Below, piece after piece: positions 1-33,580 of a DNA stretch of 39,911 bases (positions are counted from its first letter, which is position 1; every line of letters starts with the position of its first letter). The stretch comes from Pseudomonadota bacterium. GTDB taxonomy: Bacteria > Pseudomonadota > Gammaproteobacteria > Burkholderiales > Burkholderiaceae_C. The notes beneath the pieces were generated by a model. It ran no database searches. It had not been told where the DNA came from and saw only the letters and a list, made by a program, of their open reading frames with translations. Where the stretch lies: the NCBI GenBank assembly GCA_030535425.1, contig JAUNHQ010000025.1, positions 1 through 39,911 on the forward strand. The letters are read 5' to 3'. Both the position numbers and the translations under genes were made by a program.

Positions 1-354
1 TTTATTTCTGTGGCCTTGATTTGCGAACATTTGCGGTAGTGTGAACACGCCCTAGAGCCTGCTGAGAATGCGCATGACGGCGGGCTGGGGGGCCAAAACG
101 GTATTTGCGGCCTTGTCCATGCCCGCCATGGCTGGGCCATGCCTGCGCGTGACGCCTGGTATCTGCCTGTTGCTGGCAGCCCATCCCACGGCGCCAGTCC
201 ATTCTCACCAGACCCCAGGCCACAACAGGCATTTTGCTATTTTTTATATAGCTTAAAGTCCTTATAAGATGCGCGCAAAGTCCCTTTTCAAGCAAGCATC
301 CACCAACCTTGCAGCATGCTCGCCTGACACCACGGCACAGCCGGCGCGCAGCTT
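1..354. other. Gene-free stretch downstream of proB
   Basis: No credible gene is seen here. Short open frames lack family resemblance, a signal sequence or a ribosome binding site. It is the 3' side of the minus-strand proB gene. The only structured item is a copy of the dispersed AT-hairpin/GCGCGCAAA repeat at 233-290. A small GCCATGGC palindrome near 126-133 has no assignable role. What lies to the left of base 1 is unknown, so this could also be the flank of another gene. Confidence 0.6.
233..290 (+). repeat. Dispersed intergenic repeat, copy A
   Basis: Nearly full-length copy: TTTGCTAT, a T-rich loop, ATATAGCTTAAA, then CCTTATAA, GCGCGCAAA and TCCCTTTT. The 5' half can fold as GCTAT/ATAGC. 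It lies beyond the 3' end of proB in antisense orientation, one of only two of the nine copies not in sense behind a stop codon. The gene it might belong to on the plus strand would lie outside the window. Confidence 0.75.
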
Positions 355-1518
355 TCAGCGCGTGAGCACCAGGTTGTCGCGGTGCACCATCTCCGGCTCG
401 GCGGTGTAGCCGAGCAAGGCGGCGATTTCGCTGCTGGGTTTGCGGCACAGCAGGCGCGCTTCGGCGCTGGAGTAGTTGGCCAGGCCGCGCCCCACTTCGG
501 CGCCGGTGATGTCGCGAATGGCAATCACGTCGCCGCGCGAGAACACGCCCTGCACCTGCGTCATGCCAATGGGCAGCAGGCTTTTGCCTTCGCTGCGCAG
601 CTTGGCGGCAGCGCCTTCGTCCACCACCAGCGCGCCGCGCAGTTGCAGGTGGTCCATCATCCACTGCTTGCGCGCCTGGTTCTTTTGCGTGGGGGCCACC
701 AGCAGCGTGCCAATGCGCTCGCCGCGCGCCAGGCGCAGCAGGGCATCCGGCTCGCGCCCCCAGGCGATGACGGTGGAGGCGCCCGAGCCCGCCGCGCGGC
801 GGGCCGCCACGATCTTGGTGAGCATGCCGCCCTTGCCAATGGCCGAGCCCGCGCCGCCGGCCATGCGCTCCAGCGCCGGATCGCCCGCGCGTGCCTCGTG
901 CACGAACTCGGCCTCGGGGTGGCTGCGCGGATCGGCGGTGTACAGGCCTTTCTGGTCGGTGAGGATGATGAGCAGATCCGCCTCGATCAGATTGGCCACC
1001 AGCGCGCCCAGCGTGTCGTTGTCGCCCACCTTGATCTCGTCGGTCACCACGGTGTCGTTTTCGTTGATGACGGGCAGCACCTTGTGCTGCAACAGCGTCA
1101 GCAGGGTGGAGCGGGCGTTCAGGTAACGCTCGCGGTCGGCCAAGTCGGCATGCGTGAGCAGCACTTGCGCGCTGCGCAGGCCGTGCTCGCGCAGCTTGGT
1201 TTCGTACATCTGCGCCAGGCCCATCTGGCCGACGGCGGCGGCGGCTTGCAGCTCGTTGACTTCGTGCGGGCGCTTGGCCCAGCCCAGGCGTTTCATGCCC
1301 TCGGCAATGGCGCCGCTGGAGACCATGATGACCTCGCGCTGGCCCAGCAGCCCCTGGGCCTCGTCACCATGGGCCAGCACCGCCATCTGGCGGCACCACT
1401 CGCCAATGGCCTGCGCGTCCAGCCCGCGCCCTTCGTTGGTCACCAGGCTGGAGCCTACCTTGATGACGATGCGGCGCGACTGGGCCAGCACGCAAGACAG
1501 GGATGAGTCGGCAGTCAT
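355..1518 (-). CDS. proB: Glutamate 5-kinase (proline biosynthesis)
   Basis: Catalyses ATP-dependent phosphorylation of L-glutamate to gamma-glutamyl phosphate, the first committed step of proline synthesis, in the cytoplasm. The 387-residue protein has the two expected parts: an N-terminal amino-acid-kinase domain (VIKVGSSLV near residue 18, VSSGAIAEG, and the INENDTV...VGDNDTL substrate and nucleotide region) and a C-terminal PUA domain from about residue 285 ([13 protein letters not shown]...GVFSRGDVI). The length matches the PUA-bearing type. It starts 44 bp after the valS stop on the same strand, so co-transcription is likely. No strong Shine-Dalgarno is visible. The proA gene is not in the window. 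In the family the enzyme is feedback-inhibited by proline; nothing here tests that. Confidence 0.97.
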
Positions 1519-1562
1519 GAGTCGGTTGTTGCTTCGGCGTTGATGTCAGGCGGCGCGGCTTT

Positions 1563-4538
1563 TCAGCCCTGCGCGCCCAGTCGGTCCAGCTGGCCGCGCA
1601 GCTTGTCCAGCGTGGCGCCAAAGTCGGCCAGGCGCTGCTTTTCTTGCTCAATCACAGCGGGCGGCGCCTTGGCCACGAAGGCTTCGTTGCCCAGCTTGGC
1701 GCTGGCTTTGGCGATTTCGCCTTCCAGACGCTTGATTTCTTTGTCCAGCCGGGCTTTTTCGGCGGCCACGTCGATCTGCATGAACAGCGCCAGGCGCGCG
1801 TCGCCCACCACGGCCACGGGGGCAGCGCCGGCGGCGGCGGCCCAGGTGGCTTCGGTGTCAAACACTTTCACTTCGCTGAGCTTGGCCAGGGCTTGCAGCA
1901 CCGGCGCGTGTTGCTGGATGAAGGCAGTGTCGCCAAGCGCATACAGGGGCAGGCGCTGCGCGGGCGAGACTTGCATTTCGCCGCGCAGATTGCGGCAGGC
2001 GTCCACCAGGGCTTTGAGGCGGGCCACTTCGCCCTCGGCCGCTTCGTCGATGTTTTCAGCCTGCGCTTGCGGGTAGGGCGCGCAGGCAATGCTGCCGCCG
2101 GGCGGCACGGTTTTGCCGGCCAGGGGGGCAACGACTTGCCACAGCGCCTCGGTGACGAAGGGGATGACGGGGTGGGCCAGGCGCAGCACGGCTTCGAGCA
2201 CGCGCAGCAGGGTGCGGCGGGTGGCGCGCTGCTGATCGGGGCTGCCGGTCTGGATTTGCACTTTGGCGATTTCCAGATACCAGTCGCAGTACTCGTTCCA
2301 CACAAAGTCGTAAAGGGCGGTGGCCACGTTGTCCAGCCGGTAGTCGGCAAAGCCCTGGGCCACGGCGGCTTCTACTTTTTGCAGGCGGCTGACGATCCAG
2401 CGGTCGGCGGCGCTGCGGTGCTGGGCGCTGGTTTCGTCACCACAGTCGTAGCCCTCGCAGTTCATCAGCACAAAGCGGCTGGCATTCCAGAGCTTGTTGC
2501 AGAAGTTGCGGTAGCCCTCGCAGCGCTTGCTGTCGAAGTTGATGCTGCGCCCCAGGCTGGCCAGGGCGGCAAAGGTAAAGCGCAGCGCGTCGGCCCCATA
2601 GGCGGGAATGCCGTCGGGAAATTCCTTGCGCGTGGCCTTTTCGACTTGCGGGGCGGTTTCGGGCTTGCGCAGGCCGGTGGTGCGTTTTTTCAGCAGGGGT
2701 TCGAGCGCGATGCCGTCGATCAGGTCCACGGGGTCAAGCACGTTGCCTTCGCTTTTGCTCATCTTCTTGCCCTGCGCGTCGCGCACCAGGCCGTGGATGT
2801 ACACGTCTTTGAAGGGCACGCGGCCGGTGAAGTGGCAGGTCATCATGATCATGCGCGCCACCCAGAAGAAAATGATGTCGTAGCCGGTGACGAGCACGCT
2901 GCTGGGCAGGTACAGGTTGTAGTCGGCGGTGGCTTCTGCGGTGGCGTCGTTTTGCTCAGGCCAGCCCATGGTTGAGAAGGGCACCAGCGCGGACGAATAC
3001 CAGGTGTCCAGCACGTCGGGGTCGCGCTCCAGCGCGCCGGTGTAGCCTGCGGCGGCGGCCTTGGCGCGGGCCTCCTGCTCATCGCGGGCCACGTACACGC
3101 TGCCGTCTTCGCCATACCAGGCGGGAATCTGGTGGCCCCACCAAAGCTGGCGGCTGATGGTCCAGTCCTGGATGTTGTTCATCCACTGGTTGTAGGTGTT
3201 GACCCACTGCTCGGGCACAAAGCGCACCTGGCCGCTTTGCACGGCGTCAATGGCTTTTTGGGCGATGGATTTCGTCTCGCCCTCGCCCACCTTGGTCATG
3301 GCCACGAACCATTGGTTGGTGAGCATGGGCTCGATGACCTGCCCGGTGCGGGCGCAGCGCGGCACCATGAGCTTGTGCTTTTTGGTTTCGACCAGCGCGC
3401 CAATGGCCTCCAAGTCTTTCACCATGGCCTTGCGGGCCACGAAGCGATCCATGCCTTGGTATTTTTCAGGAATCAGTCTGTCTGGGAATTCCCCAAGCGG
3501 AGCGTCTTCTACGAGCACCCTTTGTCCCGGCTGATCACGCTGCATTCGTTGAATATCGGAGCGTGCAGTGATCAACTTCGCTGACAAATCAAAAATGTTA
3601 AGTATCGGCAGGCCATGCCGCTGGCCCACGGCGTAGTCGTTCACGTCGTGCGCGGGAGTGACCTTGACCACGCCGGTGCCAAAGTCCTTGTCCACGTAGT
3701 CGTCGGCAATCACCGGAATCTCGCGGCCCACCAGCGGCAGCTTCACCGTCTTGCCAATCAGGTGCCGGTAGCGCTCGTCCTCGGGGTGCACCATCACGGC
3801 CACGTCGCCCAGCATGGTTTCGGGCCGGGTGGTGGCCACCGTCAGGCTGCCGCTGCCGTCGCTCAAGGGGTAGGCGATGTGCCACAAAAAGCCGTCTTCC
3901 TCCTCGCTTTCCACCTCCAGATCGCTCACCGCGCTTTTGAGCACCGGGTCCCAGTTCACCAGGCGCTTGCCGCGGTAAATCAGGCCCTGCTCGTACAGGC
4001 GCACAAAGGTTTCCGTCACCACCTTGGACAGTTTCTCGTCCATGGTGAAGTACTCGCGGCTCCAGTCCACCGTGTCGCCCATGCGGCGCATTTGCTGGGT
4101 GATGGTGTTGCCCGACTGCTCTTTCCATTCCCACACGCGGGCCACGAAGTTCTTGCGGCCGAGCTGGTGGCGATCAAGGCCTGTGCTTTGCAGCTGGCGC
4201 TCCACCACGATTTGCGTGGCAATGCCCGCGTGGTCGGTGCCGGGTATCCAGGCCGTGTTGTAGCCCCGCATGCGGTGGTAACGCGTGAGGCTGTCCATGA
4301 TGGTCTGGTTGAACGCATGGCCCATGTGCAGCGTGCCCGTGACGTTGGGCGGGGGCAGCTGGATGCTGAAGTTCTCGCCCTTGGCCGCCGCCTCGGCGCT
4401 GGGCTGGCCGGTGCCGCGAAAGCCCGCGCGGCCTAGGCCAGCGGCTTCCCACGCGGGGCCCCAATGCGCCTCGATGGCGGCAGGTTCAAAAGACTTGGAC
4501 AGGCTGGCAAGGCCGGGCTGGGCAACGGGGGTGGACAT
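1563..4538 (-). CDS. valS: Valyl-tRNA synthetase
   Basis: Charges tRNA-Val with valine and edits mischarged threonine. The 991-residue class Ia synthetase has the HIGH-type motif in [13 protein letters not shown], an editing (CP1) domain with [10 protein letters not shown], the KMSKS motif in [10 protein letters not shown], an anticodon-binding domain and a C-terminal tRNA-binding coiled coil rich in Lys, Glu and Arg over about the last 65 residues. It is somewhat longer than I expect of betaproteobacterial ValS. The extra length falls at residues about 309-357 (bases roughly 3468-3612), where codons switch abruptly to types rare elsewhere in the gene (ATA, CTT, TCA, CGA, AGG, AGA, GTA). The frame stays open, so the enzyme is probably functional. 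It is upstream of proB on the same strand. The start is the ATG preceding STPVAQPG. Confidence 0.97.
3468..3612 (-). other. Atypical-codon segment inside valS
   Basis: Reading on the minus strand, about 48 codons use ATA, CTT, ATT, TTT, TCA, CGA, AGG, GTA, AGA and CCT, whereas flanking valS codons are almost all G/C-ending. GC is near 50 per cent. The encoded stretch runs from [10 protein letters not shown] to RLIPEKYQG, between the editing-domain core and [10 protein letters not shown]. An imperfect inverted repeat with TGATCAC/GTGATCA ends sits inside at about 3531-3573. This looks like recent replacement or insertion in a length-variable loop, in frame. Boundaries are approximate. Confidence 0.6.
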
Positions 4539-4772
4539 GGGATGGCAAGCGGGCTAATAAGGCGCAGCGGCGGCCGCGCAAGACTGGTAAGAAAACGGCA
4601 AAAGGAAAAAAGGCCGCCAACAAGCGGGGCAAGCAGTTCAAGCGGCCCAGGCACCCAGGCCACGCGCCAGCAGGCAGGGCTAGGCGCGGTGGCCATGGCC
4701 GCGCCCGGCGCAGCGCAAAATCCGGCATTTTAGTGCCTCAGCCAGTGGCGCAGCAGGGTACAAAAGTACTAG
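4539..4772. other. Upstream region of valS
   Basis: Non-coding stretch between the repeat behind the lytic transglycosylase and the valS start. On the minus strand a TAAAAT hexamer at 4728-4733 could be a -10 box, which would give a leader of about 180 bases. The matching -35 region is poor. TAAAAT is followed by an AAAAT/ATTTT dyad. No leader peptide or T-box-like structure could be recognised by eye. Confidence 0.3.
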
Positions 4773-4817
4773 AGAAAACGCTGTTTGCGCGCGTATTTAA
4801 ACGGTTATTTGCTATGG
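4773..4817 (-). repeat. Dispersed intergenic repeat, copy B (supplies a stop codon)
   Basis: Minus-strand copy lacking the left hairpin arm: CATAGCAAATAACC, TTTAAATAC, GCGCGCAAACAGC and GTTTTC. The TAG stop of the lytic transglycosylase lies inside the conserved CATAGC word, so coding sequence runs straight into the element. The orientation is sense with respect to that gene. Confidence 0.75.
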
Positions 4818-5461
4818 TTTTTGAACTCCGTCGCGGTCAACGAAGATCCAGCGCTTTTGCGCGGCAAACACGGCATTGGGATAGGGATCGCGCCCACGCG
4901 AGCCGTTGTAGCGGCCCAGGGCCATGAACAGGTTGCCGCGCTCGCGGTCCAGGTAGTGACGCAGGATCACGCAGCCAAAGCGCAGGTTGGTCTGCATGTG
5001 AAACAGCTTGGCCGGGTCGCCGTCACCGATCACGCGCGTCCAAAAGGGCATGACCTGCATGTAGCCGCGCGCGCCCACGCGCGAAACGGCGTATTTGCGA
5101 AACGCGCTTTCCACCTGAATCAGCCCCAGCACGAGCGAGGTGTCCAGCCCCGCGCGGCGGCTTTCGTACCACACGGTCTGCAAAAACTCGGTGCGCTCGC
5201 TGAAGTCTTTCTTGCGCGGGTACAGCCGGTCGCTCATGGCCGATAGCCAGCGCAGGTACACCAGCCGGGCCTCGGTGTTGGCAAACACGGGCAGCGGCGG
5301 CGCGCTGTTGGCAATGGCGGAGCTGAGGGCGCCGCGCACCGAATCGGCCAGCGGCTCTTCCAGTTGCCCGCCCGCGCGGGCCAGGGCGGGGAGCAGCAGC
5401 GCCCCCGGAAAGGCCGCCAGCGCCGCCAGGCAGCGCCTGCGGCTGGCAGCGGGTGCGGCGG

Positions 5462-5465
<4 letters not shown>
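4812..5465 (-). CDS. Periplasmic lytic transglycosylase (SLT domain)
   Basis: Predicted to cleave the glycan strands of peptidoglycan non-hydrolytically. The 217-residue protein begins with an Arg-rich N-terminus and a hydrophobic signal segment (residues about 10-31, ending ALARAGG). The SLT catalytic domain follows, with the predicted catalytic Glu119 in GLIQVESAF, then [12 protein letters not shown] and the C-terminal ALGRYNGS motif typical of the fold. Its ATG overlaps the proS stop (ATGA), so it is translationally coupled to proS. The C-terminus runs into a dispersed repeat copy that provides the TAG stop; the last residues, VQKP, may therefore differ from relatives. The family is clear; I assign no specific mlt gene name. 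Confidence 0.92.
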
Positions 5466-7207
<1,742 letters not shown>

Positions 7208-7262
7208 GAGGAAAAGACTGGTGGCGCACCGCAGCACGCCAAGCATGGGGGTTTGTGCCCAC

Positions 7263-7290: not shown

Positions 7291-7321
7291 GGCAACAACT
7301 TATTGAAATTGGAGTCTGATT

Positions 7322-7990: not shown

Positions 7991-8523
7991 GCCGTCCACC
8001 GCTTGCTCCGATGCGGCGCCCTCGCCTGGCGCTGGCGGCCTGCTTGGCAGCCTTGGCCTGGCCGGCCTGGGGGCAATACGCCAATGCCGACCGGCCCGAC
8101 TGGCAAGAAGATGCGGTGCCGCCCCCGCCCGCCTACAGCACGCAGGGGCTGATCGAGCTGGAAATGCCACGTGGCGCGTCCGTGCGCATAGGCCTCGATC
8201 CGAAAACGCTGACCATCAACCATGAAACGGGCATCGTGCGCTACGTGGTGGTCGCGCGCGGCCCCTCGGCGGTGAATGCGTCTTACGAAGGCATCCGCTG
8301 TGCCACGGGCGAATACCGCGTGTATGCCCGCCAGGTGCAAGGCGGCGCATGGAGCACCGCCAGCGACAGCGCCTGGAAACCCATGCGCGGGCAAAACCAC
8401 ATCATGGTTCAGTACCCCTACAAGCTGGCCAAGGATGGCGTCTGCCAGGGCACAGGCACGCGGCAGACAGTGCGCGAAATCGTGCGCGAGCTGCAAACGG
8501 GGGGCCAATCGGCCTACCAATAG
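7987..8523 (+). CDS. CNP1-like family periplasmic protein
   Basis: Secreted protein of 178 residues, resembling the CNP1-like family named after a neisserial protein; the biochemical role is unknown to me. A signal peptide covers about residues 10-30 ([16 protein letters not shown]), with probable cleavage after WG or WGQ. The mature part has an acidic/proline segment ([13 protein letters not shown]), then a beta-rich core with [12 protein letters not shown] and [12 protein letters not shown]. The two cysteines of the mature part (about 102 and 155) could form a disulphide. The start overlaps the rppH stop by 4 bp. Pairing of this family with rppH is something I recall for Burkholderiales; whether the functions are linked is not known. 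Confidence 0.85.
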
Positions 8524-8571
8524 CACTGTCCAATAGCATTGCCGCTGCGTGCATGAACGGCCATTGACGAT

Positions 8572-8633
8572 GAAAGAAAAAGGCCATTTGCGCGCTTCCA
8601 TCATGGGTTTTAAGCTATACTTAATATAGCAAA
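8572..8633 (-). repeat. Dispersed intergenic repeat, copy C
   Basis: Full-length minus-strand copy: TTTGCTATA, short loop, TATAGCTTAAAACCC, GCGCGCAAATGGCC, TTTTTC. The hairpin is GCTATA/TATAGC. It lies between the CNP1-like gene and bdhA, both on the plus strand, so it is antisense to both; this is the clearest exception to the sense-behind-stop pattern. On the plus strand it carries TATACT and other AT-rich words that might contribute a -10 box for bdhA. Confidence 0.75.
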
Positions 8634-8671
8634 CACCTTTTCCACCCCCGATTCGCAAGGAGAACTTCCGC

Positions 8672-9445
8672 ATGTCTCTCAAAGGCAAAACCGCCCTCGT
8701 CACCGGCTCCACCAGCGGCATTGGCCTGGGCATCGCCATTGAGCTGGCCAAACAGGGCGCCAACATCGTGATGAACGGCTTTGGCGACGTGCAAGCGCCC
8801 AAGGCGCAGATTGAGGCGCAAGGCGTCAAAGTAGTGCATCACGGCGCCGACATGAGCCGCCCCGCCGAGATCGAAGCCATGATGCGCTTTGCCGCCGAGC
8901 AGTTTGGCGGCGTGGACGTGCTGGTCAACAACGCGGGCATCCAGCACACGGCCAGCGTGCGTGACTTTCCCACCGACAAGTGGGACGCCATCATCGCCAT
9001 CAACCTGTCCTCGGCCTTTCACACCACGCGCCTGGCCATTCCGTACATGACGGACAAGAACTGGGGCCGCATCATCAACATCGCCTCGGTGCATGGGCTG
9101 GTGGCGTCCAAGGACAAATCCGCCTACGTGGCGGCCAAGCACGGCATCGTGGGCCTGACCAAAGTCACCGCGCTGGAACTGGCCACCACCGGCGTCACAG
9201 CCAACGCCATCTGCCCCGGCTGGGTGCTGACCCCGCTGGTGCAAAAGCAGATTGATGACCGCGCGGCCAAGCACGGCATCAGCGCCGAGCAGGCCACGCG
9301 CGAGCTGCTGGGCGAAAAAGAGCCTTCGCAGCAGTTCACCACGCCCGAGCAGCTGGGCGGCATGGCCGTGTTCTTGTGCAGCCCCGCCGCCGACAACATG
9401 CGCGGCATTGCCTGGGCCAACGACGGCGGCTGGACAGCGCAGTAA
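8672..9445 (+). CDS. bdhA: 3-hydroxybutyrate dehydrogenase
   Basis: NAD-dependent interconversion of (R)-3-hydroxybutyrate and acetoacetate, used when polyhydroxybutyrate is mobilised. It is a 257-residue classical short-chain dehydrogenase with the cofactor motif TGSTSGIG at 11-18, NNAG at 86-89, and catalytic Asn111, Ser139, Tyr152 and Lys156. The C-terminus RGIAWANDGGWTAQ matches the typical BDH ending and separates it from other SDRs. An AAGGAGA ribosome binding site lies 8 bases before the ATG. It is a single gene facing a convergent exporter gene. No phaC or acetoacetate-CoA transferase is nearby. Confidence 0.94.
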   Translation: MSLKGKTALVTGSTSGIGLGIAIELAKQGANIVMNGFGDVQAPKAQIEAQGVKVVHHGADMSRPAEIEAMMRFAAEQFGGVDVLVNNAGIQHTASVRDFPTDKWDAIIAINLSSAFHTTRLAIPYMTDKNWGRIINIASVHGLVASKDKSAYVAAKHGIVGLTKVTALELATTGVTANAICPGWVLTPLVQKQIDDRAAKHGISAEQATRELLGEKEPSQQFTTPEQLGGMAVFLCSPAADNMRGIAWANDGGWTAQ

Positions 9446-16315: not shown

Positions 16316-17176
16316 ATGAACTACGTCAAGACCCCCGAAGGCAACGAGGCGCTGCGCCAGCGCCATGCCCTCAGCCTGCGCGAGCGCCAGATCATGGTGC
16401 TGTGCAATGGCGTGCGCACGCTGGATGATCTGATCGACCTGTTCGGCAGCAGCGTCGCCACCGAGGTGCAGCAGCTTCAGCACCGCGGCCTGCTGGCAAC
16501 CTTGGCACATGCGCGCCACCTGCCGCCCGGCGCTGGCGGCGTGCCGCCCACCCGTTTTGTGGCCAGCGACTTGCCCCCTGATGCCCCGCCCGCGCCCAAC
16601 CCCGCTCAGCTGGCACGCCTTTCCCTGCAAGAGCTGGCCGAACTGGCCAACGTGCCCCCTCTGCCTGGCACCGCATCAGGCGCAGACCATGCGGCCAGCC
16701 AGCCGACGCCCCCGCGCGAGTCCGGCAGCACCACCGTGGACGTGCCAGCGGATGCGCCCATGGGTGCACCCACAGGTGCGCAAACGATTGCTCAGACGGG
16801 CGCCCAGACGGCTCTGGCCACCGCCGTCAACCGCATCGACACCGGGCAGATGCCCGGGCAATCCACCGTGGCCGCGCAGGCCTACATGACACAGGTGCTG
16901 ATGGCGCTGGAAGACGCCAGCGCCACAGCCCTGATCGAATCGCACGGTGATGTGCGGCACGACGTGGACATCGTGCTGTACCTGGCCCAAGGCCTGGGCC
17001 TGGCACACGCCCTGGCGGGCGAGGACGTGGCCCTGCGCGTGGCTCTGCGTACCAGCGGCCTGTTGCCTGCCGATGCCGTGCCCATGCTGCTGGACTGCGC
17101 GCTCGACCACGTGCCAGCCTGTTTTGGCCTGCTGCTGTACGAGTTCGCGCTGGCCGGGCGCGACACCAGCAGATGA
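16316..17176 (+). CDS. Protein of unknown function with winged-helix-like N-terminus
   Basis: I do not recognise a characterised family. The 286-residue protein has three regions. Residues 1 to about 75 (MNYVKTPEGNEALRQR..., LSLRERQIMVLCNGVRTLDDL) look helical and like a small winged-helix domain ending in LQHRGLLATLA. Residues about 80-180 are rich in Ala, Pro, Thr and Gln, including a short run of GAQT-type repeats, probably disordered. Residues about 190-286 form a helical domain with a DVRHDVDIVLYLAQGLGLAHAL core. There is no signal peptide or membrane segment, so it is probably cytoplasmic. It follows the TRAP permease by 118 bp and a hairpin; functional linkage is unproven. A role in regulation is a guess from the N-terminus only. 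Confidence 0.75.
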   Translation: MNYVKTPEGNEALRQRHALSLRERQIMVLCNGVRTLDDLIDLFGSSVATEVQQLQHRGLLATLAHARHLPPGAGGVPPTRFVASDLPPDAPPAPNPAQLARLSLQELAELANVPPLPGTASGADHAASQPTPPRESGSTTVDVPADAPMGAPTGAQTIAQTGAQTALATAVNRIDTGQMPGQSTVAAQAYMTQVLMALEDASATALIESHGDVRHDVDIVLYLAQGLGLAHALAGEDVALRVALRTSGLLPADAVPMLLDCALDHVPACFGLLLYEFALAGRDTSR

Positions 17177-17213: not shown

Positions 17214-17273
17214 TTTGCTACATATTAAGTAGCACAAATCCCTTTATACAAGCGCGCGAATGGCCTTTTTCAT
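17214..17273 (+). repeat. Dispersed intergenic repeat, copy D
   Basis: Full copy: TTTGCTAC, loop ATATTAA, GTAGCACAAATCCC, TTTATACAA, GCGCGCGAATGGCC, TTTTTCATC. The stem is GCTAC/GTAGC instead of GCTAT/ATAGC: both arms changed together, so pairing is kept. Sense behind the unknown 286-residue protein and convergent to truC. Confidence 0.8.
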
Positions 17274-19711: not shown

Positions 19712-19757
19712 ACATAGCAAACTTTTGTTTATAGACGCGCGCAAACGGCCTTTTTGG
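19712..19757 (+). repeat. Dispersed intergenic repeat, copy E
   Basis: Copy lacking the left hairpin arm: CATAGCAAAC, TTTATAGAC, GCGCGCAAACGGCC, TTTTTGG. It is sense behind the P4H-like gene (30 bp after its stop) and upstream of the Bug-protein gene. Its CATAGCAAA beginning matches copy B. Confidence 0.75.
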
Positions 19758-19837: not shown

Positions 19838-20806
19838 ATGATGCAACGCCGCACCCTTCTTGCCGCCACCTTTGCCCTGGCCGCCAGCACCAGCGCCCTG
19901 GCCCAGACCGCCAAACCCATCCGCCTGATCGTGCCCTACGCCCCCGGCGGCCCGCTGGACGTCACCGCCCGCGCCCTGGCCGAGCGCGTGAAAGACACGC
20001 TCGGCCCCGTCATCGTGGAAAACAAGCCCGGCGCAGGCGGCAACATTGGCTCCGACTACGTAGCCAAGGCCGCTGCCGATGGCAGCGTCATCGGCATCGC
20101 CGCCGTGGCCACCCACGCCATCAACCCCTGGCTCTTCGCCAAAATGCCCTACGACGCCGCCAAGGACTTCGCCCCCATCACCCAGATGGTGCGCGTGCCC
20201 AACGTGCTCGTCATGAACGCAGCCACCGCCAAGCGCCTGAACATCCACACCCTGGCCGATCTGATCGCCTACGCCAAGAAAAACCCCGGCAAACTCAACT
20301 ACGGCTCGGGCGGCAACGGCAGCGCCGGTCACCTGGCTGGCGAAATGTTCAAGCAAGGCGCTGGCATCTTCGCCGTCCACATCCCCTACAACGGCGGCAA
20401 CCCCGCGCAAATGGCGCTGCTGGCAGGCCAGGTGGACTTCAACATCGACAACCTGGCCACCGCCGCCGCCAACATCAAGGCCGGCAAGCTCAAGGCCCTG
20501 GCCGTCACCACCGCCCAGCCCTCACCCATGCTGCCCGGCGTGCCCGCCATTGCCCAAACCCTGCCCGGCTTTGCCGTAGACACCTGGTGGGGCCTGGTCG
20601 CCCCGGCCGGCACCCCAAAAGAAGCCGTGGACAAACTCAACGCCGCCTTCACCGCCGCCCTGAACGCCCCTGACACGCGCGATCGCTTTGCCCTGCTCAT
20701 GGCCGAGCCCATGCCCACCACCCCTGCGCAGTTTGGCGAGTTGATGGCGCGCGAACGGGCACGCTACGAATCCGTCGTCAAGCGCTCCGGCGCCCGGGTC
20801 GACTGA
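19838..20806 (+). CDS. Bug-family tripartite tricarboxylate (TTT) binding protein
   Basis: Periplasmic solute receptor of the very large Bug family of Burkholderiales. The 322-residue precursor starts MMQRRTLLAATFALAAS with an Arg-Arg-led signal peptide ending near TSALAQ. The hallmark KPIRLIVPYAPGGPLDVTAR and VENKPGAGGNIGSDYVAKA follow. Later blocks are LNYGSGGNGSAGHLAGEMF, HIPYNGGNPAQMALLAGQVD and WWGLVAPAGTPKEAVDKLN. No TctA/TctB membrane genes are adjacent, so it is an orphan receptor; the ligand (often a carboxylate or aromatic acid) is unknown. It is bracketed by two direct copies of the dispersed repeat. Two ATGs lie side by side; the first is used here. Confidence 0.92.
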   Translation: MMQRRTLLAATFALAASTSALAQTAKPIRLIVPYAPGGPLDVTARALAERVKDTLGPVIVENKPGAGGNIGSDYVAKAAADGSVIGIAAVATHAINPWLFAKMPYDAAKDFAPITQMVRVPNVLVMNAATAKRLNIHTLADLIAYAKKNPGKLNYGSGGNGSAGHLAGEMFKQGAGIFAVHIPYNGGNPAQMALLAGQVDFNIDNLATAAANIKAGKLKALAVTTAQPSPMLPGVPAIAQTLPGFAVDTWWGLVAPAGTPKEAVDKLNAAFTAALNAPDTRDRFALLMAEPMPTTPAQFGELMARERARYESVVKRSGARVD

Positions 20807-20851
20807 CACCACCGCTCAGCCCCTGCCCGCCCGCCCCGTCCCAAGTGGAAA

Positions 20852-20902
20852 ATTTTTATAGCTGAAAACCCTTATGGGGCGCGCGCGAACGGCCTTTTTC
20901 AT
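20852..20902 (+). repeat. Dispersed intergenic repeat, copy F
   Basis: Copy with a truncated left arm: ATTTTTATAGCTGAAAACCC, TTATGGG, GCGCGCGAACGGCC, TTTTTCATT. Sense behind the Bug-protein gene (46 bp after its stop) and upstream of dusC. Confidence 0.75.
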
Positions 20903-21023
20903 TCACAAGCCTGTGCGGCCTATACCCACCCAGGGTGCCGCCCCACCCTGAACATCCGCACAGCCGCCGCCAGCCGCCGCCTGGCGGCACACGCCCTGCC
21001 CCCTCATTGACGCACCCAGCGCC

Positions 21024-23114: not shown

Positions 23115-23191
23115 AGGCGCGTAGCTCAGCTGGTTAGAGCACCACCTTGACATGGTGGGGGTCGTTGGTTCGAGTCCAATCGCGCCTACCA
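23115..23191 (+). tRNA. tRNA-Val (GAC)
   Basis: A 77-base cloverleaf folds by eye: acceptor AGGCGCG with CGCGCCT, D-arm GCTC...GAGC with AGCTGGTTA in the loop, anticodon stem CCACC/GGTGG around TTGACAT (anticodon GAC, valine), variable loop, and T-arm GTTGG/CCAAT around TTCGAGT. CCA is encoded. It decodes GUC and GUU codons and is the substrate of the ValS encoded at the left of this window. Confidence 0.97.
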
Positions 23192-24289: not shown

Positions 24290-24311
24290 ACAAGCGAACC
24301 CGAGAGATCGG

Positions 24312-27393: not shown

Positions 27394-27395
27394 GT

Positions 27396-28334: not shown

Positions 28335-28570
28335 GCGTCAGACCAGGGTGAGGCGGCGCCACTGTCGTCCAGCACCTTGACCTGGTCTTGCACGGCTTGC
28401 AGGCGCTCGCGGCAATAGCCCAGCAGTTCGGTGCCGCGCTGGTACTGGCCCAGCAGCTCTTCCAGCGGCAGCTGGCCCGCCTCCAGCCTGGCGATCAGCT
28501 GCTCCAGCTCGGTCACGGCATCGCCATAGCTGGCAGGCAGGGCAGATCGAGCAGATGGCTTTCGGGTCAT
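28331..28570 (-). CDS. xseB: Exodeoxyribonuclease VII small subunit
   Basis: Small helical subunit of the ExoVII single-strand DNA exonuclease. The 79-residue length and the block YGDAVTELEQLIARLEAGQLPLE (residues about 15-37), followed by LLGQYQRGTELLGYCRERL, fit the family. The stop overlaps the ispA start (ATGA). The large-subunit gene xseA is not in the window. It is the first gene of the xseB-ispA-dxs operon and diverges from the Rieske oxygenase gene. Confidence 0.93.
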   Translation of the reverse strand: MTRKPSARSALPASYGDAVTELEQLIARLEAGQLPLEELLGQYQRGTELLGYCRERLQAVQDQVKVLDDSGAASPWSDA

Positions 28571-28668
28571 GGGGGCGTGGGCGAAGTGAATGGGTCATTT
28601 TATTCGGCGCAGCCTGGGTATCTGGCCCGCCGGGAAAGGGCCGTCTGATCCAGGCCATTGGGCTCGGC

Positions 28669-28674
28669 TAGAAT
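28669..28674 (+). promoter_or_regulatory. Candidate -10 box for the Rieske oxygenase gene
   Basis: TAGAAT lies about 110 bp upstream of the ATG in the 215-bp divergent gap. The corresponding -35 (TGATCC at 28646-28651, 17-bp spacing) is poor, so this is tentative. Confidence 0.3.
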
Positions 28675-28785
28675 GCCCGGTTCCCTTTGCGGCAACGCCA
28701 AGCGGTTTCCCGCGCCAAATATCTTCGGATGCCAAGCGCTTACTTCCTGCCCCTTCATAGGGGGAGTCTTCAAGATCGGAATCCC

Positions 28786-29922
28786 ATGTCTGATTTGAGT
28801 CTTCAGTTACAGCAGGCGGCAAGTCAACTTCCCGTCCAGTCTTATTTCGACCAGGCGCTGTTCGAGCGCGAGCAGAGGCTTATCTTCGAGTCCGGTCCGC
28901 GCTATGTGGGCCATGCGCTGTCGGTGCCCAACGCTGGCGATTATTTCGCCCTGCCGCAAGAAGGCGAAGGGCGCGTGTTGGTGCGCAACGCCCAGGGCCA
29001 GGTGCAGCTGCTGTCCAACGTGTGCCGCCACCGCCAGGCGGTGATGCTCAAAGGGCGCGGCTCGCTGCAAGGCCAGGGCAAGGGCCATGCGGGCGGCAAC
29101 ATCGTGTGCCCGCTGCACCGCTGGACCTACAGCGACAAGGGCCAGCTGCTGGGTGCGCCGCACTTCAGCCACGACCCCTGCCTGAACCTGAACCAGTACA
29201 GCCTGCGCGAATGGAATGGCCTGCTGTTTGAGGACAACGGCCGCGACATTGCCGCTGACCTGGCCGGCATGGCCGAGGCGCCCAACCTGTCGTTTGACGG
29301 CTACGCGCTCGATCACGTGGAGCTGCACGAGTGCAACTACAACTGGAAGACCTTTATCGAGGTCTATCTGGAGGACTACCACGTCGGCCCCTTCCACCCC
29401 GGCCTGGGCAACTTCGTCACCTGCGACGACCTGAAGTGGCAGTTCGGGCAGGAATATTCCGTGCAGACCGTGGGCGTGGCCCCGGCCTTCAAGCCCGGCT
29501 CGGACGTGTACAAGAAATGGCACGAGGTGCTGCTGAACTACCAGGGCGGCGAGCGCCCGCAGCGCGGCGCCATTTGGCTGACCTACTACCCGCACATCAT
29601 GGTGGAGTGGTATCCGCACGTGCTCACCGTGAGCACGCTGCACCCCATCAGCGTGGACAAGACGCTGAACATGGTGGCCTTTTACTACCCCGAGGAAATC
29701 GTCGCCTTCGAGCGCGAATTCGTCGAAGCACAGCGCGCCGCCTACATGGAAACCTGCATTGAGGACGACGAGATTGCCGAGCGCATGGACGCGGGCCGCA
29801 AGGCCCTGATGCTGCGCGGCGACAACGAAGTCGGCCCCTACCAAAGCCCCATGGAAGACGGCATGCAGCACTTTCACGAGTGGTACCGGCGCAAGCTGGG
29901 GGCCGCCCCCATGAGTGCTTGA
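28786..29922 (+). CDS. Rieske non-heme iron oxygenase, alpha-subunit type
   Basis: Predicted ring-hydroxylating or demethylating oxygenase; the substrate is unknown. In the 378-residue protein the Rieske 2Fe-2S ligands are Cys80 and His82 (NVCRHRQ) and Cys108 and His111 (CPLHRWTY). Twenty-five residues separate the two pairs, longer than the usual about 15-17, because of a Gly/Lys/Gln-rich loop. The catalytic iron site is in FIEVYLEDYHVGPFHPGL: bridging Asp197, His199 and His204, with a later acidic ligand expected near CIEDDEIAERMDAG. No beta subunit, ferredoxin or reductase gene is adjacent. It diverges from the isoprenoid operon and ends at a clear terminator, so it is monocistronic. Confidence 0.88.
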   Translation: MSDLSLQLQQAASQLPVQSYFDQALFEREQRLIFESGPRYVGHALSVPNAGDYFALPQEGEGRVLVRNAQGQVQLLSNVCRHRQAVMLKGRGSLQGQGKGHAGGNIVCPLHRWTYSDKGQLLGAPHFSHDPCLNLNQYSLREWNGLLFEDNGRDIAADLAGMAEAPNLSFDGYALDHVELHECNYNWKTFIEVYLEDYHVGPFHPGLGNFVTCDDLKWQFGQEYSVQTVGVAPAFKPGSDVYKKWHEVLLNYQGGERPQRGAIWLTYYPHIMVEWYPHVLTVSTLHPISVDKTLNMVAFYYPEEIVAFEREFVEAQRAAYMETCIEDDEIAERMDAGRKALMLRGDNEVGPYQSPMEDGMQHFHEWYRRKLGAAPMSA

Positions 29923-29943
29923 GCACCTGCCTTGAAAAAACCC

Positions 29944-29978
29944 AAGGGCTGCGCACTGCCGCAGCCCTTTGTCTTTTG
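29944..29978 (+). terminator. Terminator after the Rieske oxygenase gene
   Basis: AAGGGCTGCG (29944-29953) pairs perfectly with CGCAGCCCTT (29960-29969) around a 6-base loop, followed by TGTCTTTTG. An A-run precedes it, so it could also work on the minus strand. It lies 21 bp past the stop. Confidence 0.8.
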
Positions 29979-30045
29979 TGCCTTTGTCTTTGTACTGTGT
30001 TCAGCCGCCTTTGGCGCAGCCCATCCAAGAAATAATCGCGCCCTT

Positions 30046-30933
30046 ATGCAAGCCACCTGGATGATCGCCGCCTCGCTCTTTTTTGCCCTGATGAGCGTGT
30101 GCATCAAATACGCCTCGCCCTACTTCAGCCCGCTGGAGATCGTGTGCTATCGCGGCGCCATCGGCATGGTGTTCATGTGGGTGCTGGCGCGTTCGCGCCG
30201 CGTGCCGCTGCGCACCACGGTGCCCATGATGCACGTGTGGCGCAACGTGGTGGGCGTGGCCGCCCTCACCGCCTGGTTCTATGCCATTGCCCACTTGCCC
30301 CTGGCCACGGCCATGACGCTCAACTACATGAGCGGCGTGTGGGTGGCCGCCTTTTTGGTCGGCGGCACGCTGCTCATGGGGCGCCTGGCCGACATCCGCC
30401 GCCAGGGGCCGCTGGTGCTGGCCGTGATGGCCGGCTTTGCCGGCGTGGTGATGATGCTGCGCCCCACGCTGGAGCAAAACCAGCTCTTTGCCGGCCTGAT
30501 CGGCCTGATGTCCGGCATGATGGCTGCGCTGGCCTACATCCAGGTCGCCGCGCTGGGCCGCGTGGGCGAACCCGAGGCACGCACCGTGTTTTACTTCTCG
30601 CTCGGCGCCACGCTGGCCGGCGGCGTGGGCATGCTGTTTTTCGACATGCACTCTCTCACCACCCGCCAGGCGCTGTGGCTCATCCCCATTGGCGTGCTGG
30701 CCGCCCTGGGCCAGCTGTGCATGACGCGCGCCTACACCCGTGGCGCCACCATCGTCGTGGCCAGCCTGCAATACACCGGCATCATCTTCGCCGCCCTGTT
30801 CGGCCTGCTGCTGTTTGGCGATCAGATCCCGCTGATCGGCTGGGCCGGCATGGCCACCATCATCGCCAGCGGCATCGCCGCCACCTTTTTGCGCGCCCGC
30901 GCCCTGCCCAACCCGCCCGCCGAGGAACACTGA
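30046..30933 (+). CDS. EamA-family (drug/metabolite) permease
   Basis: Inner-membrane transporter of 295 residues with ten predicted helices in two EamA repeats (MIAASLFFALMSVCIKYASPYFS at the N-terminus; LFAGLIGLMSGMMAALAYIQ opening the second half). The substrate is not readable. The frame is open 38 codons further upstream from a TTG, but that part crosses the terminator of the previous gene, so the ATG before QATWMIAAS is preferred. Its stop is 6 bp before the sulfurtransferase gene, so the two are co-transcribed. The link to sulfur chemistry is only contextual. Confidence 0.9.
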   Translation: MQATWMIAASLFFALMSVCIKYASPYFSPLEIVCYRGAIGMVFMWVLARSRRVPLRTTVPMMHVWRNVVGVAALTAWFYAIAHLPLATAMTLNYMSGVWVAAFLVGGTLLMGRLADIRRQGPLVLAVMAGFAGVVMMLRPTLEQNQLFAGLIGLMSGMMAALAYIQVAALGRVGEPEARTVFYFSLGATLAGGVGMLFFDMHSLTTRQALWLIPIGVLAALGQLCMTRAYTRGATIVVASLQYTGIIFAALFGLLLFGDQIPLIGWAGMATIIASGIAATFLRARALPNPPAEEH

Positions 30934-30939
30934 CCCATC

Positions 30940-31815
30940 ATGCCCAGCCCCTACACCCGCCTCATCACCCCCGCCCAGCTGCAAGCCCTGCAAGCCAGCG
31001 GCGCCCCGTTGCGCGTGTTCGATTGCAGCAGCGAGCTGGGCAACCCCGCCAAGGCCGATGAGCTGTTTCACAGCGCCCGCATCGCCGGCGCCGTGCAAGC
31101 CCACCTGGAGCGCCACCTGAGCGCCCACGACAGCACCCACGCCCTGAACGGCGGGCGCCACCCCCTGCCCCCGCGCGAGCACTTTGCCCGCACCCTGCAA
31201 GCCCTGGGCTTTGACAACGCCATGCAAGCCGTGGTGTACGACCGCAACGGCAACAGCTCCTGCGGCCGCCTGTGGTGGATGCTCAAATGGGCCGGCCACG
31301 ACGCCGTGGCCGTGCTCGACGGCGGCCTTGCCGCCTGGCAAGCCGCCGGTGGGGCCATGCACAGCGGCCCCGCCCCTGCCCCCGCGCCCGGCCGCTTTGG
31401 CCTGCAAGCGCCCTTGCGCACCCTGCGCCTGATCGACGACGTGCGGCAACACCTGCACAGCCCCGCCCAAACCCTGATCGACGCCCGCGCCGCCCCCCGC
31501 TACCGGGGCGAAACCGAGCCGCTCGACCCCGTGGCCGGGCACATCCCCGGCGCGCTCAACCGCCCCTTTGCCGACAACTTCATGCCCGACGGGCGCTTCA
31601 AACCCGCCGCGCAACTGCGGCGCGAATTCGACACCCTGCTGGCCGGGCGCGACCCAGGCAGCGTCGTCGCCTACTGCGGCAGCGGCGTCAGCGCCGTGCC
31701 CAACCTCATCGCCATGGAACTGGCCGGCTACCCGCCCCCCGCGCTGTACGCCGGCAGCTTCAGCGAATGGAGCCGCACCCCCGGCCTGCCCGTGGCCCGT
31801 GGCAGCCAGCAGTAA
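30940..31815 (+). CDS. sseA: Thiosulfate/3-mercaptopyruvate sulfurtransferase
   Basis: Two-domain rhodanese that transfers sulfane sulfur from mercaptopyruvate or thiosulfate to an acceptor. The 291-residue protein has an inactive N-terminal rhodanese domain (VVYDRNGNSSCGRLWWML, AVLDGGLAAWQAAGG) and an active C-terminal domain with RYRGETEPLDPVAGHIPGALN. Cys246 in VVAYCGSGVSA is the active site; the CGSGV loop is of mercaptopyruvate-sulfurtransferase type (CG[ST]GV) rather than classical rhodanese (CRKGVT). The C-terminus has YAGSFSEWSRTPGLPV. It starts 6 bp after the EamA gene. A dispersed repeat begins immediately after its TAA stop. Confidence 0.92.
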   Translation: MPSPYTRLITPAQLQALQASGAPLRVFDCSSELGNPAKADELFHSARIAGAVQAHLERHLSAHDSTHALNGGRHPLPPREHFARTLQALGFDNAMQAVVYDRNGNSSCGRLWWMLKWAGHDAVAVLDGGLAAWQAAGGAMHSGPAPAPAPGRFGLQAPLRTLRLIDDVRQHLHSPAQTLIDARAAPRYRGETEPLDPVAGHIPGALNRPFADNFMPDGRFKPAAQLRREFDTLLAGRDPGSVVAYCGSGVSAVPNLIAMELAGYPPPALYAGSFSEWSRTPGLPVARGSQQ

Positions 31816-31873
31816 CTATATTTTTTATAGCTTAAAACCCTTTAAATACGCGCGCAAATGGCCAATTTTCCAT
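31816..31873 (+). repeat. Dispersed intergenic repeat, copy G (abuts a stop codon)
   Basis: Begins on the base after the sseA TAA: CTATA-TTTTT-TATAG hairpin, CTTAAAACCC, TTTAAATAC, GCGCGCAAATGGCC, AATTTTCC. Sense behind sseA, and one of two inward-facing copies flanking the cupin gene. Confidence 0.8.
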
Positions 31874-31898
31874 AGAGCCAAAACCTGCCCCTTTCCCC

Positions 31899-32300
31899 TT
31901 ACCCGGCAGTCCAGCCCGTGCGCACAAACAGCGTGACCAGCGGCTCATCGCCCACCTGGCGGCTGCGATGCCCATGCACCTGCGGGTCAAACACGGCGCC
32001 AGGCGGCAGCGTGTCGTTGGAATAAAAGCATTCGCCTGGCCCAAACACGCGCGTGCTGCCGTCTTGCAGACCAATCTCCATGTGCCCGGCCAACACCACC
32101 AGCCATTGCGGCGTGCCCGTGCAATGAAAGCTGCTGGCAAAACCCACCGGGCTGCGCCGCAGCTGCCAGCCATCCGAAGGCATCAGCGCCGACAAACGCG
32201 CGGCGGGCGAGCCTTCGTCCAGCGCCACCGGCACATCGCGAAAACGCGCACGCCCATCGTCATCAGTGAACAGCACAGGAAGGGTTAGGCATGACGTCAT
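31899..32300 (-). CDS. Small cupin-domain protein
   Basis: Single-domain cupin of 133 residues, cytoplasmic (no signal peptide). A conserved-looking core runs FASSFHCTGTPQWLVVLAGHMEIGLQ, then FGPGECFYSNDTLPPGAVFD and VHGHRSRQVGD; His residues in the first and last blocks are possible metal ligands. The reaction is unknown. An alternative TTG start at 32327 would add nine residues (MPGRKPVAA); neither start has a good Shine-Dalgarno. The gene is boxed in by two oppositely oriented copies of the dispersed repeat (31816-31873 and 32334-32397), which is unusual. Upstream on the same strand is a P-loop gene. Confidence 0.78.
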   Translation of the reverse strand: MTSCLTLPVLFTDDDGRARFRDVPVALDEGSPAARLSALMPSDGWQLRRSPVGFASSFHCTGTPQWLVVLAGHMEIGLQDGSTRVFGPGECFYSNDTLPPGAVFDPQVHGHRSRQVGDEPLVTLFVRTGWTAG

Positions 32301-32333
32301 GGCAGCAACGGGCTTGCGGCCCGGCAAAGAAGG

Positions 32334-32397
32334 TTCATCAAAAAAGGCATTTGCGCTCTATTTACAAGCATTTGTAGCTATATAAAAAATAGCAAAT
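32334..32397 (-). repeat. Dispersed intergenic repeat, copy H (abuts a stop codon)
   Basis: Starts directly after the TGA of the P-loop gene: (AT)TTGCTAT, T-rich loop, ATATAGCTACAAATGC, TTGTAAATA, GAGCGCAAATGCC, TTTTTTGATGA. Sense behind that gene and facing copy G across the cupin gene. Confidence 0.8.
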
Positions 32398-32973
32398 TCA
32401 ATCCAACGCATCCAGCAGCGCCTCAAACGCGGGCGCACCCGCCGCGGTGTTGTCAAACATCAGCAGCTCGGGGTATTGAGCCGGCGCAGGCTTGAACAGG
32501 CGGGTGCGGTACTGGTCCCAATGCGCCAGCTTCCAGGCATCGTTGGGGTTGCCGCGCGCGGTGATGCGCCGGCGCGCCTCGTCCTCGGCCAAATGCACCC
32601 AGACGATGTGCACCCGCACCTCATCGCCCACGCGCAGCCAGGCGCGGTCGCTCAGCTGCCTGGCCTTGATCTCGCGCGACAGCGGGCCCACCACGATGCA
32701 GTTCACGCCCAGGGCCAGGTTCTCGCGCGCCGTGTCCAGCAGGCCCGCGTATTCGGGGTTGCGCAGGTGTTGCAGATAAGGCGGGCTGTCGCGGTCGTTC
32801 GGGTCACCCGTGAGCACCCCCATCACAGCCGAGCTGTAGTTGCCATACAGCGTGTCCTTGTCCAGCAGGCAAAAAGACTGGCCGGTGCGCTGGTGCAGCA
32901 GCGGCAGCGCGCGCTTGGCCAGGGTGGTCTTGCCAGTGCCGGCATGGCCGCAAAAGAAAATCAGACGGGGCAT
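32398..32973 (-). CDS. P-loop ATPase / kinase-like protein
   Basis: Small nucleotide-binding protein of 191 residues starting MPRLIFFCGHAGTGKTTLAKR, with the Walker A motif GHAGTGKTT at about 9-17. Later come FCLLDKDTLYGNY, an expected acidic/base region (VNCIVVGPLSREIK) and VHIVWVHLAEDEARRRITARG, which fits the lid region of small-molecule kinases and zeta-toxin-like ATPases. The substrate is unknown. The start codon is chosen because the frame upstream lacks family features and MPRLIFFCG begins the first beta strand. No antitoxin-like partner is adjacent, so I do not call it a toxin. Its TGA stop is fused to a dispersed repeat copy. Confidence 0.82.
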   Translation of the reverse strand: MPRLIFFCGHAGTGKTTLAKRALPLLHQRTGQSFCLLDKDTLYGNYSSAVMGVLTGDPNDRDSPPYLQHLRNPEYAGLLDTARENLALGVNCIVVGPLSREIKARQLSDRAWLRVGDEVRVHIVWVHLAEDEARRRITARGNPNDAWKLAHWDQYRTRLFKPAPAQYPELLMFDNTAAGAPAFEALLDALD

Positions 32974-33095
32974 GAGAAACAGCCAATGAAAGCCAAAGAA
33001 CAAGTCCCAAAGCGTATCAGCCTGCCACCCCCACTCCCTGCCAATGGCGGCTGCACGCCTGAATGAAACCCTGCCCAGGCCCGCCAGACACACCC

Positions 33096-33101
33096 TAGAA
33101 T
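33096..33101 (+). promoter_or_regulatory. Candidate -10 box very close to a start codon
   Basis: TAGAAT ends 7 bases before the ATG at 33109. If used, transcription would start at or next to the start codon, giving a leaderless mRNA for the DUF2782-like gene. No clear -35 is present. Confidence 0.3.
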
Positions 33102-33108
33102 CTGCCCC

Positions 33109-33444
33109 ATGCCCGGACCCAAGCCCCTTTATCCGCTACTGCTCACCTGTTTGCTGGCGGCCAGCCCTGCGCTACAGGCACAAACCCCCGCCGCGCCAGA
33201 AGCACAGCTGACACGCGATGCGCCCGTGCTCGACCGCCACACGCAGCGCGTGGAACACATCACGCACGAAGACGCCGGCTCCCGCGTAGACGAAGTGCGC
33301 TCCGGTGGCGAAACCCGGCACATCACGGTGCAGCCCAAAGCGCCCGTGCCTGCGTACGATGTGCTCCCCCCCAGCAGCACAGGCACAAGCCGCGAAACCG
33401 CCCCCGGCGGCACCGGCCCGCGGGTCTGGAAAATCCCGTTCTGA
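33109..33444 (+). CDS. DUF2782-like small secreted protein
   Basis: Exported protein of 111 residues. A signal peptide spans about residues 6-25 (LYPLLLTCLLAASPALQAQ). The mature part is hydrophilic, with the family-like block VEHITHEDAGSRVDEVRSGGETRHITVQPK, then PAYDVLPP and a C-terminus GPRVWKIPF. I associate this pattern with DUF2782 from memory; its function is not known. In Burkholderiales this gene usually sits with polA and thrB, but here a repeat element occupies the interval before thrB and no polA is present. No Shine-Dalgarno is visible. Confidence 0.75.
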   Translation: MPGPKPLYPLLLTCLLAASPALQAQTPAAPEAQLTRDAPVLDRHTQRVEHITHEDAGSRVDEVRSGGETRHITVQPKAPVPAYDVLPPSSTGTSRETAPGGTGPRVWKIPF

Positions 33445-33517
33445 CACGCCCGCCCCTTCCTTGAGCTTGTCCGGCACGGGCGCCAGGCAAGCCGCCTTTT
33501 TTCAGCAGCGCCGCCTG

Positions 33518-33580
33518 TTTGCTATATCTTATATAGCTGCAAACCATTACCAATAGCGCGCAAACACCGTTTTTCATCAT
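33518..33580 (+). repeat. Dispersed intergenic repeat, copy I
   Basis: Best hairpin of the family: GCTATAT-CTT-ATATAGC, a perfect 7-bp stem, then TGCAAACC, ATTACCAATA, GCGCGCAAACACC, GTTTTTCATCAT. Sense behind the DUF2782-like gene and ending about 20 bp before thrB. Confidence 0.85.

What the first reader, a model, noticed from the sequence alone, without database searches (positions are those of the whole stretch)
233..33580. Nine-copy dispersed intergenic repeat with hairpin, GCGCGCAAA core and T-tail
Nine elements of about 45-65 bp share an ordered architecture: AT hairpin (GCTAT/ATAGC), (C)TTAAAACCC, about 10 AT-rich bases, GCGCGCAAA (GCGCGCGAA in two, GAGCGCAAA in one), then GGCC or similar and TTTTTC. 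Copies: 233-290(+), 4773-4817(-), 8572-8633(-), 17214-17273(+), 19712-19757(+), 20852-20902(+), 31816-31873(+), 32334-32397(-), 33518-33580(+). All are between genes or just touch a stop codon. That is about one per 4.4 kb, far too many for chance, and no feature type I know explains them. They could be a mobile miniature element, an mRNA 3'-end element or a protein-binding site.
Basis: seen in the sequence. Interest (0 to 1): 0.72.

Follow-up and report, generated by a model that had tools for sequence, protein, structure and literature searches.

The report
Repeated DNA element at gene ends
Hundreds of copies of a roughly 60-letter DNA element of fixed layout sit just after genes in this bacterium and in many relatives; its core letters look protected by selection, but what reads it is unknown.

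Summary
The nine copies are real. Covariance model R1 finds exactly these nine in the window (35.6-75.3 bits, next 14.9). R2, trained only on copies from other genomes, finds seven of nine. The own genome holds roughly 500: 68 hits in 440 kb. R2 hits 45 of 120 sampled genomes of the family; named matches include Acidovorax, Giesbergeria and Simplicispira.

The general form has a second, GC-rich dyad, GCGCTTG-5-CAAGCGC, then GGCC and T's. In this genome 41 of 56 ungapped copies lack its left arm.

In eight genomes elements lie in 63 of 139 convergent, 137 of 600 co-oriented and 19 of 200 divergent spacers of 60 nt or more, sense or antisense (86:60). In 30 orthologous pairs from four relatives core columns differ 7.7%, variable ones 46%. 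Stem pairs hardly covary; the T-tract is as good in antisense copies.

Best reading (0.45): a REP-like DNA element, multiplied lineage by lineage and kept at gene ends by selection on fixed blocks. Its reader is unknown. It does not meet tested definitions of GTAG/CGTC REPs or BRE. A terminator role is not excluded.

The parts
227..296 (+). copy 1, AT dyad intact, one-armed own-genome variant; at the window edge, next called gene 355-1518 (-)
   Evidence: R1 62.5 bits, R2 47.8 bits; context undetermined
4767..4836 (-). copy 2, degenerate AT dyad; overlaps the end of gene 4812-5465 (-), sense, upstream of gene 1563-4538 (-)
   Evidence: R1 35.6 bits, not found by R2
8570..8639 (-). copy 3, intact AT dyad; antisense between genes 8011-8523 (+) and 8672-9445 (+)
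   Evidence: R1 75.3 bits, R2 56.5 bits
17208..17277 (+). copy 4; sense, after gene 16316-17176 (+)
   Evidence: R1 68.2 bits, R2 33.7 bits
19693..19762 (+). copy 5, left AT arm missing; sense, between genes ending 19682 (+) and starting 19838 (+)
   Evidence: R1 42.3 bits, not found by R2
20837..20906 (+). copy 6, left AT arm missing; sense, between genes ending 20806 (+) and starting 21024 (+)
   Evidence: R1 53.9 bits, R2 33.8 bits
31806..31875 (+). copy 7; between convergent genes 30940-31815 (+) and 31899-32276 (-)
   Evidence: R1 65.4 bits, R2 46.8 bits
32333..32402 (-). copy 8; sense, after gene 32398-32973 (-) and before gene 31899-32276 (-)
   Evidence: R1 63.2 bits, R2 53.3 bits
33512..33581 (+). 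copy 9; sense, after gene 33109-33444 (+) and before gene 33599-34597 (+)
   Evidence: R1 62.8 bits, R2 49.8 bits

Best explanation
The nine copies belong to a large family of REP-like interspersed DNA elements found across many genomes of the bacterial family. Shown here: blocks at fixed spacing (CT...TAGC, GCGC...GCGC, GGCC, TTT); an estimated several hundred copies in the two genomes sampled most; placement at gene 3' ends in either orientation; copies at orthologous gene ends of four relatives with the core kept while other positions changed; and, in this genome, a private one-armed variant at mostly different places. Inferred: the blocks are read as DNA by a protein, either the machinery that multiplied the element or a host DNA-binding factor; copies near promoters are removed by selection and copies at transcript ends are kept. 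Two-armed copies may also act as weak terminators. No function is shown.
For: Occupancy 63/139 convergent, 137/600 co-oriented, 19/200 divergent spacers. Sense 86, antisense 60, T-tract equal. Fixed layout: 239 of 309 hits are exactly 70 nt. Core differs 7.7%, variable columns 46% in 30 orthologous pairs; random pairs 12% and 61%. Orientation kept in 41 of 44 shared gene ends of four relatives, 2 of 7 with the own genome. Own-type core 104 times here, in 0 of 149 other genomes. R2 hits 45 of 120 family genomes.
Against: No reader protein found. The selection test is partly circular: core columns were chosen as conserved, detection needs them, and the 30 pairs reuse sites. Many orthologous gene ends have an element in one genome only. 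No near-identical copies or precise empty sites were seen, so movement is inferred only. 64 of 309 hits fall inside genes by my caller. The sense excess (p 0.038) and the terminator-like hairpins leave room for an RNA role.
Confidence: 0.45

Rival explanations
1. Purely selfish REP or MITE-like element without host function: it multiplied in some lineages by a transposase acting in trans, and its placement only shows where insertions are tolerated.
For: Private variant and discordant placement in this genome. Placement like that reported for REPs (PMC3733652, passages). A Y1_Tnp (RAYT-type) gene is commoner in R2-positive genomes, 39 of 45 against 44 of 75 (p 0.0012; not corrected for phylogeny). 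One RAYT-like gene has elements on both sides (L206).
Against: Core kept at orthologous sites. No near-identical copies among 91 (best identity 0.83). Elements are not denser near RAYT-like genes: 10 separate hits in 60.6 kb at E 0.1. Complete genome G151 has 72 R1 matches and no Y1_Tnp match.
Confidence: 0.25
2. Intrinsic terminator: on the sense strand two-armed copies fold a long imperfect hairpin (columns 22-35 with 41-54) followed after two bases by the T-tract, and end the upstream transcript.
For: Pairs 22-54 and 24-52 are formed in 91% and 89% of 140 copies and pair 34-42 covaries, z 3.9. 17 of 27 terminator-like hairpins after genes with a sense copy overlap the element, against 1 of 16 for antisense copies. 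Sense excess 86:60. Convergent spacers with an element have fewer terminator-like hairpins, 13 of 57 against 27 of 60. On the small alignment A3 pairing exceeded shuffles.
Against: T-tract equal in sense and antisense copies, mean 4.04 and 3.90. Fold z is modest and as strong for the antisense strand (-1.34 and -1.48; own genome -0.55 and -0.66). The convergent-spacer difference shrinks when free space is matched, 4/13 against 12/31 and 6/18 against 15/28. Antisense copies keep their orientation in orthologs. Most copies of this genome lack the left GC arm.
Confidence: 0.2
3. Binding site of a chromosome-organising or supercoiling protein (as proposed for gyrase at E. coli REPs), placed where transcripts end.
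For: Orientation indifference and highest occupancy between convergent genes.
Against: No protein identified; this genome's variant differs much from the relatives', unexpected for one shared site; no consistent replication-strand bias (G-rich strand 31 of 78, 32 of 52, 10 of 24, 10 of 20), which neither supports nor excludes it.
Confidence: 0.1

Closest known systems
GTAG- and CGTC-tagged REP sequences (PMC3733652; passages seen)
   Same: Short dyad repeats, high copy, located between co-oriented and convergent genes, downstream of coding regions.
   Different: REPs are 20-40 bp with a GTAG or CGTC tag at one end; this element spans about 60 bp with two dyads, a GGCC block and a T-tract, has no such tag, and occurs in many genera.
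Betaproteobacterial repeat element BRE (PMC3110155; passages seen)
   Same: Intergenic repeat reported from Bordetella and several Comamonadaceae.
   Different: BRE is about 90 bp, 69% GC, often tandem, at most 29 copies reported per genome; this element is AT-rich against its genome, dispersed and far more numerous.
Intrinsic transcription terminators (general knowledge)
   Same: Two-armed form: GC-rich hairpin then T-tract, downstream of stop codons.
   Different: Either orientation, extra upstream AT dyad, rigid length, block conservation with little covariation.

Membership tests
REP (GTAG/CGTC) | GTAG or CGTC tetranucleotide at one end | tested here: not met
   Consensus of own and six other genomes read by eye: ends TTGCTA... 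and ...ATTT, no such tag; definition from passages of PMC3733652
REP (GTAG/CGTC) | unit length 20-40 bp | tested here: not met
   Conservation runs over about 60 columns
REP (GTAG/CGTC) | located mainly between co-oriented and convergent genes | tested here: met
   63/139 convergent, 137/600 co-oriented, 19/200 divergent spacers
REP/RAYT system | RAYT gene flanked by the repeat | tested here: inconclusive
   10 separate hits in 19 Y1_Tnp loci, 60.6 kb, no excess over genome density; one gene flanked on both sides (L206)
MITE | terminal inverted repeats | tested here: inconclusive
   None seen by eye in the consensus; no systematic test
MITE | target-site duplication at an empty site | not tested
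   No clean empty site was available in the pairs looked at
BRE | about 90 bp, about 69% GC, often tandem | tested here: not met
   70-nt hits with GC 0.27-0.59, dispersed; BRE from passages of PMC3110155
Rfam families | match to a curated model | tested here: not met
   Only a tRNA in the window at gathering scores; in 14 relative loci no match at E 1 overlaps the element
Intrinsic terminator | stable hairpin directly followed by a T-tract | tested here: inconclusive
   Possible in two-armed copies, weak fold z, little covariation
Intrinsic terminator | orientation with the upstream gene | tested here: not met
   60 of 146 copies between co-oriented genes are antisense, with an equal T-tract

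The most novel reading that the evidence does not exclude
A new class of genome-wide boundary site: a selected DNA element of about 60 bp, indifferent to orientation, that sits in close to half of the convergent spacers in the sampled genomes and is read by an unidentified protein that blocks or manages transcription at transcript ends.
Probability: 0.22. Interest if true: 0.82.

Novelty: new variant of a known kind. Interest (0 to 1): 0.55.

Why it matters
If it is a selected DNA site, many genera of one bacterial family carry hundreds of sites of equal layout at transcript ends with no known reader, which gives a direct handle on how bacteria insulate neighbouring genes. If it is only a multiplying repeat, it is still an abundant REP-like family, undescribed as far as my searches show, with a private variant per lineage, useful for asking how such sequence populations persist.

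Tried and rejected
RNA-helix reading of the two dyads: on the first, small alignment A3 (41 copies) pairing and covariation exceeded shuffles (75.2% against 71.7% paired, score 0.162 against 0.110). On the larger set the support faded: Watson-Crick pairs 769 against 772.5 shuffled for the AT dyad (190 copies), 736 against 730 for the GC dyad (140 copies outside this genome); only pair 34-42 stands out.

RAYT mobilisation: not supported by location, though presence correlates. Replication-strand signal: none consistent. Terminator replacement in convergent spacers: p 0.019 but confounded by free space. Plasmid or phage origin: one query copy gave 2 plasmid records (Comamonas, Diaphorobacter) and no phage record. 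A strict own-type pattern in named genomes found nothing; a two-armed pattern found 21 stretches.

Literature: motif strings (98 papers hold GCGCGCAAA, 20 listed, no title on this subject; none) and term searches showed no description of this element. PMC3110155 and PMC3733652 were seen in passages, the other listed papers only as listings. Most subscription papers are not held.

Rows dropped and limits: hits overlapping a better one (312 listed, 309 kept). Column analyses used only hits of exactly 70 nt (239 of 309); pairing tests also left out 49 gene-internal ones. One chance coding match (window 22096) was left out of A2 by eye. A2's 30 pattern loci were chosen by the core motif. Thresholds differ: E 0.01 for five genomes, 0.001 for three. 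Stretches of G165, G015 and G152 were chosen as orthologous to window genes, and 5 of 20 of G173; the rest were evenly spread or the long contigs. Genes come from my own codon-usage caller. In one search seven extra R2 hits were added for this genome.

Full report
Observation. The nine copies exist at the given places. R1 was built from 40 own-genome copies, 31 from 30 pattern loci and the nine. With filters off it returns these nine at 35.6-75.3 bits; the next hit has 14.9 bits and is the opposite strand of copy 1. R2, built from 41 copies of other genomes of the genus (fetched with R1), finds seven of the nine. Three of the nine lack a proper left AT arm, a correction to the finding.

Copy number. 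In the window plus 400 kb of long contigs there are 68 non-overlapping R1 hits, about 510 per genome if extrapolated. Relative G173 has 78 non-overlapping R2 hits in 400 kb.

Anatomy. In relatives the element aligns over 70 columns without gaps: TTGCTAY-N7-RTAGC, about three bases, TTGCGCTTG-5-CAAGCGCAA, a GGCC block, one or two bases, TTT. Majority consensus sequences of six other genomes agree closely. In this genome 41 of 56 ungapped 70-mers lack the left GCGC arm; their consensus reads AAAACCC there and GCGCGCAAA on the right. The own-type core occurs 104 times here and in none of 149 other family genomes. Conservation begins sharply on the 5' side and tails off on the 3' side.

Distribution. 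R1 at E 0.01 hits 21 of 29 genomes of the genus, own included. R2 at E 1e-6 hits 45 of 120 family genomes, own included, with at most 42 candidates scored per genome. Matches to a strict two-armed pattern in named records are Acidovorax, Giesbergeria, Simplicispira and MAGs labelled Comamonadaceae, Burkholderiaceae, Burkholderiales and Gammaproteobacteria (21 stretches).

Placement. In eight genomes, of spacers of 60 nt or more, 63 of 139 convergent, 137 of 600 co-oriented and 19 of 200 divergent ones hold an element. Of 309 elements 86 lie sense and 60 antisense between co-oriented genes, 74 between convergent and 19 between divergent genes, 64 inside called genes, 6 at edges. In this genome the median distance from stop codon to element centre is 45 nt for sense and 49 nt for antisense copies. 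There is no consistent replication-strand bias.

RNA or DNA. In the AT dyad sense-strand A.C mismatches outnumber G.U, 141 to 64, and pairing does not exceed shuffles. In the GC dyad G.U and A.C are near equal (84 and 72). The T-tract is equally good in sense and antisense copies (4.04 and 3.90). An extended sense hairpin closing on columns 22 and 54, two bases before the T-tract, is possible in two-armed copies and has one clearly covarying pair. Of 27 terminator-like hairpins after genes with a sense copy 17 overlap the element, against 1 of 16 with antisense copies. Mean fold z is -1.34 sense and -1.48 antisense outside this genome, -0.55 and -0.66 within it. The terminator reading is thus alive but not favoured, least for this genome's variant.

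Descent and selection. Among G173, G165, G015 and G152, where both genomes of a pair have an element after an orthologous gene, orientation agrees in 41 of 44 cases; with the own genome in 2 of 7. These cases are not independent: sites recur across pairs, and a convergent spacer counts for both genes. One-sided cases are common too, for example 9 one-sided against 11 shared in G015-G152 and 6 against 8 in G173-G165, so turnover is real. In 30 orthologous same-orientation pairs the 19 core columns differ in 7.7% and the 25 variable columns in 46% of comparisons; random pairs give 12% and 61%. This points to selection on the core, with the circularity noted above. G173 and G165, about 90% identical over aligned stretches, show both well-preserved elements and elements at the same place whose surroundings no longer align.

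A worked site. Of 14 fetched relative loci around the ortholog of window gene 19838-20806, seven keep the same upstream gene end by eye. R2 finds the element there, on the gene's strand, in six of these (L159, L160, L163, L165, L167, L168); in the seventh, L164, a palindrome interrupts it. L169 gives a weak hit beside an IS200-type insertion. The six with another upstream sequence have no hit. G173 also has it (L142). At two other window sites it is mostly absent from relatives: after gene 31815 four of 11 loci have a hit, and before gene 33599 one of nine.

Mobility. Among 91 distinct own copies the best pairwise identity is 0.83, so nothing points to recent movement. The private variant and discordant placement point to past amplification in this lineage. 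A Y1_Tnp gene occurs in 20 of 29 genus genomes and 83 of 120 family genomes, more often with R2 hits (39 of 45) than without (44 of 75); elements are not denser near it, and complete genome G151 has elements without it.

Comparison. Rfam gave no match. REPs share the location bias but not tag or size (PMC3733652, passages). BRE differs in length, GC and tandem habit (PMC3110155, passages). I file the element as a new variant of the REP-like kind, not as a member of the defined REP families.

Verdict. A real, abundant and widespread element. The most likely reading, at 0.45, is a DNA-level element multiplied by lineage and kept at gene ends by selection on fixed blocks. What reads it is unknown.

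Noticed in passing
L164 (G167), upstream of the ortholog of window gene 19838-20806: A long palindrome sits within the GC dyad of an element, as if another element had inserted there.
   Followed up: no
L169 (G015), upstream of the same gene: A Y1_Tnp (IS200-type) match lies directly beside the 3' remains of an element, suggesting that the element was an insertion target.
   Followed up: no
L171 (G150), after the ortholog of window gene 30940-31815: Two half elements in inverted orientation flank a palindromic stretch.
   Followed up: no
L072, L089, L096, L104 (G151): Another species-specific variant with CCTAGTGAA in the middle and no RAYT-type gene in the genome.
   Followed up: partly
L088 (G155) and the 3' side of gene B in L142 and L160: An AT dyad or its remnant directly precedes an ordinary GC-rich hairpin with a T-run.
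   Followed up: no
G015, several places such as L191: 18 Y1_Tnp matches, several with equal scores, apart from a single RAYT-like gene: an IS200-type expansion.
   Followed up: no
window 23115-23191: tRNA-Val (gac).
   Followed up: no
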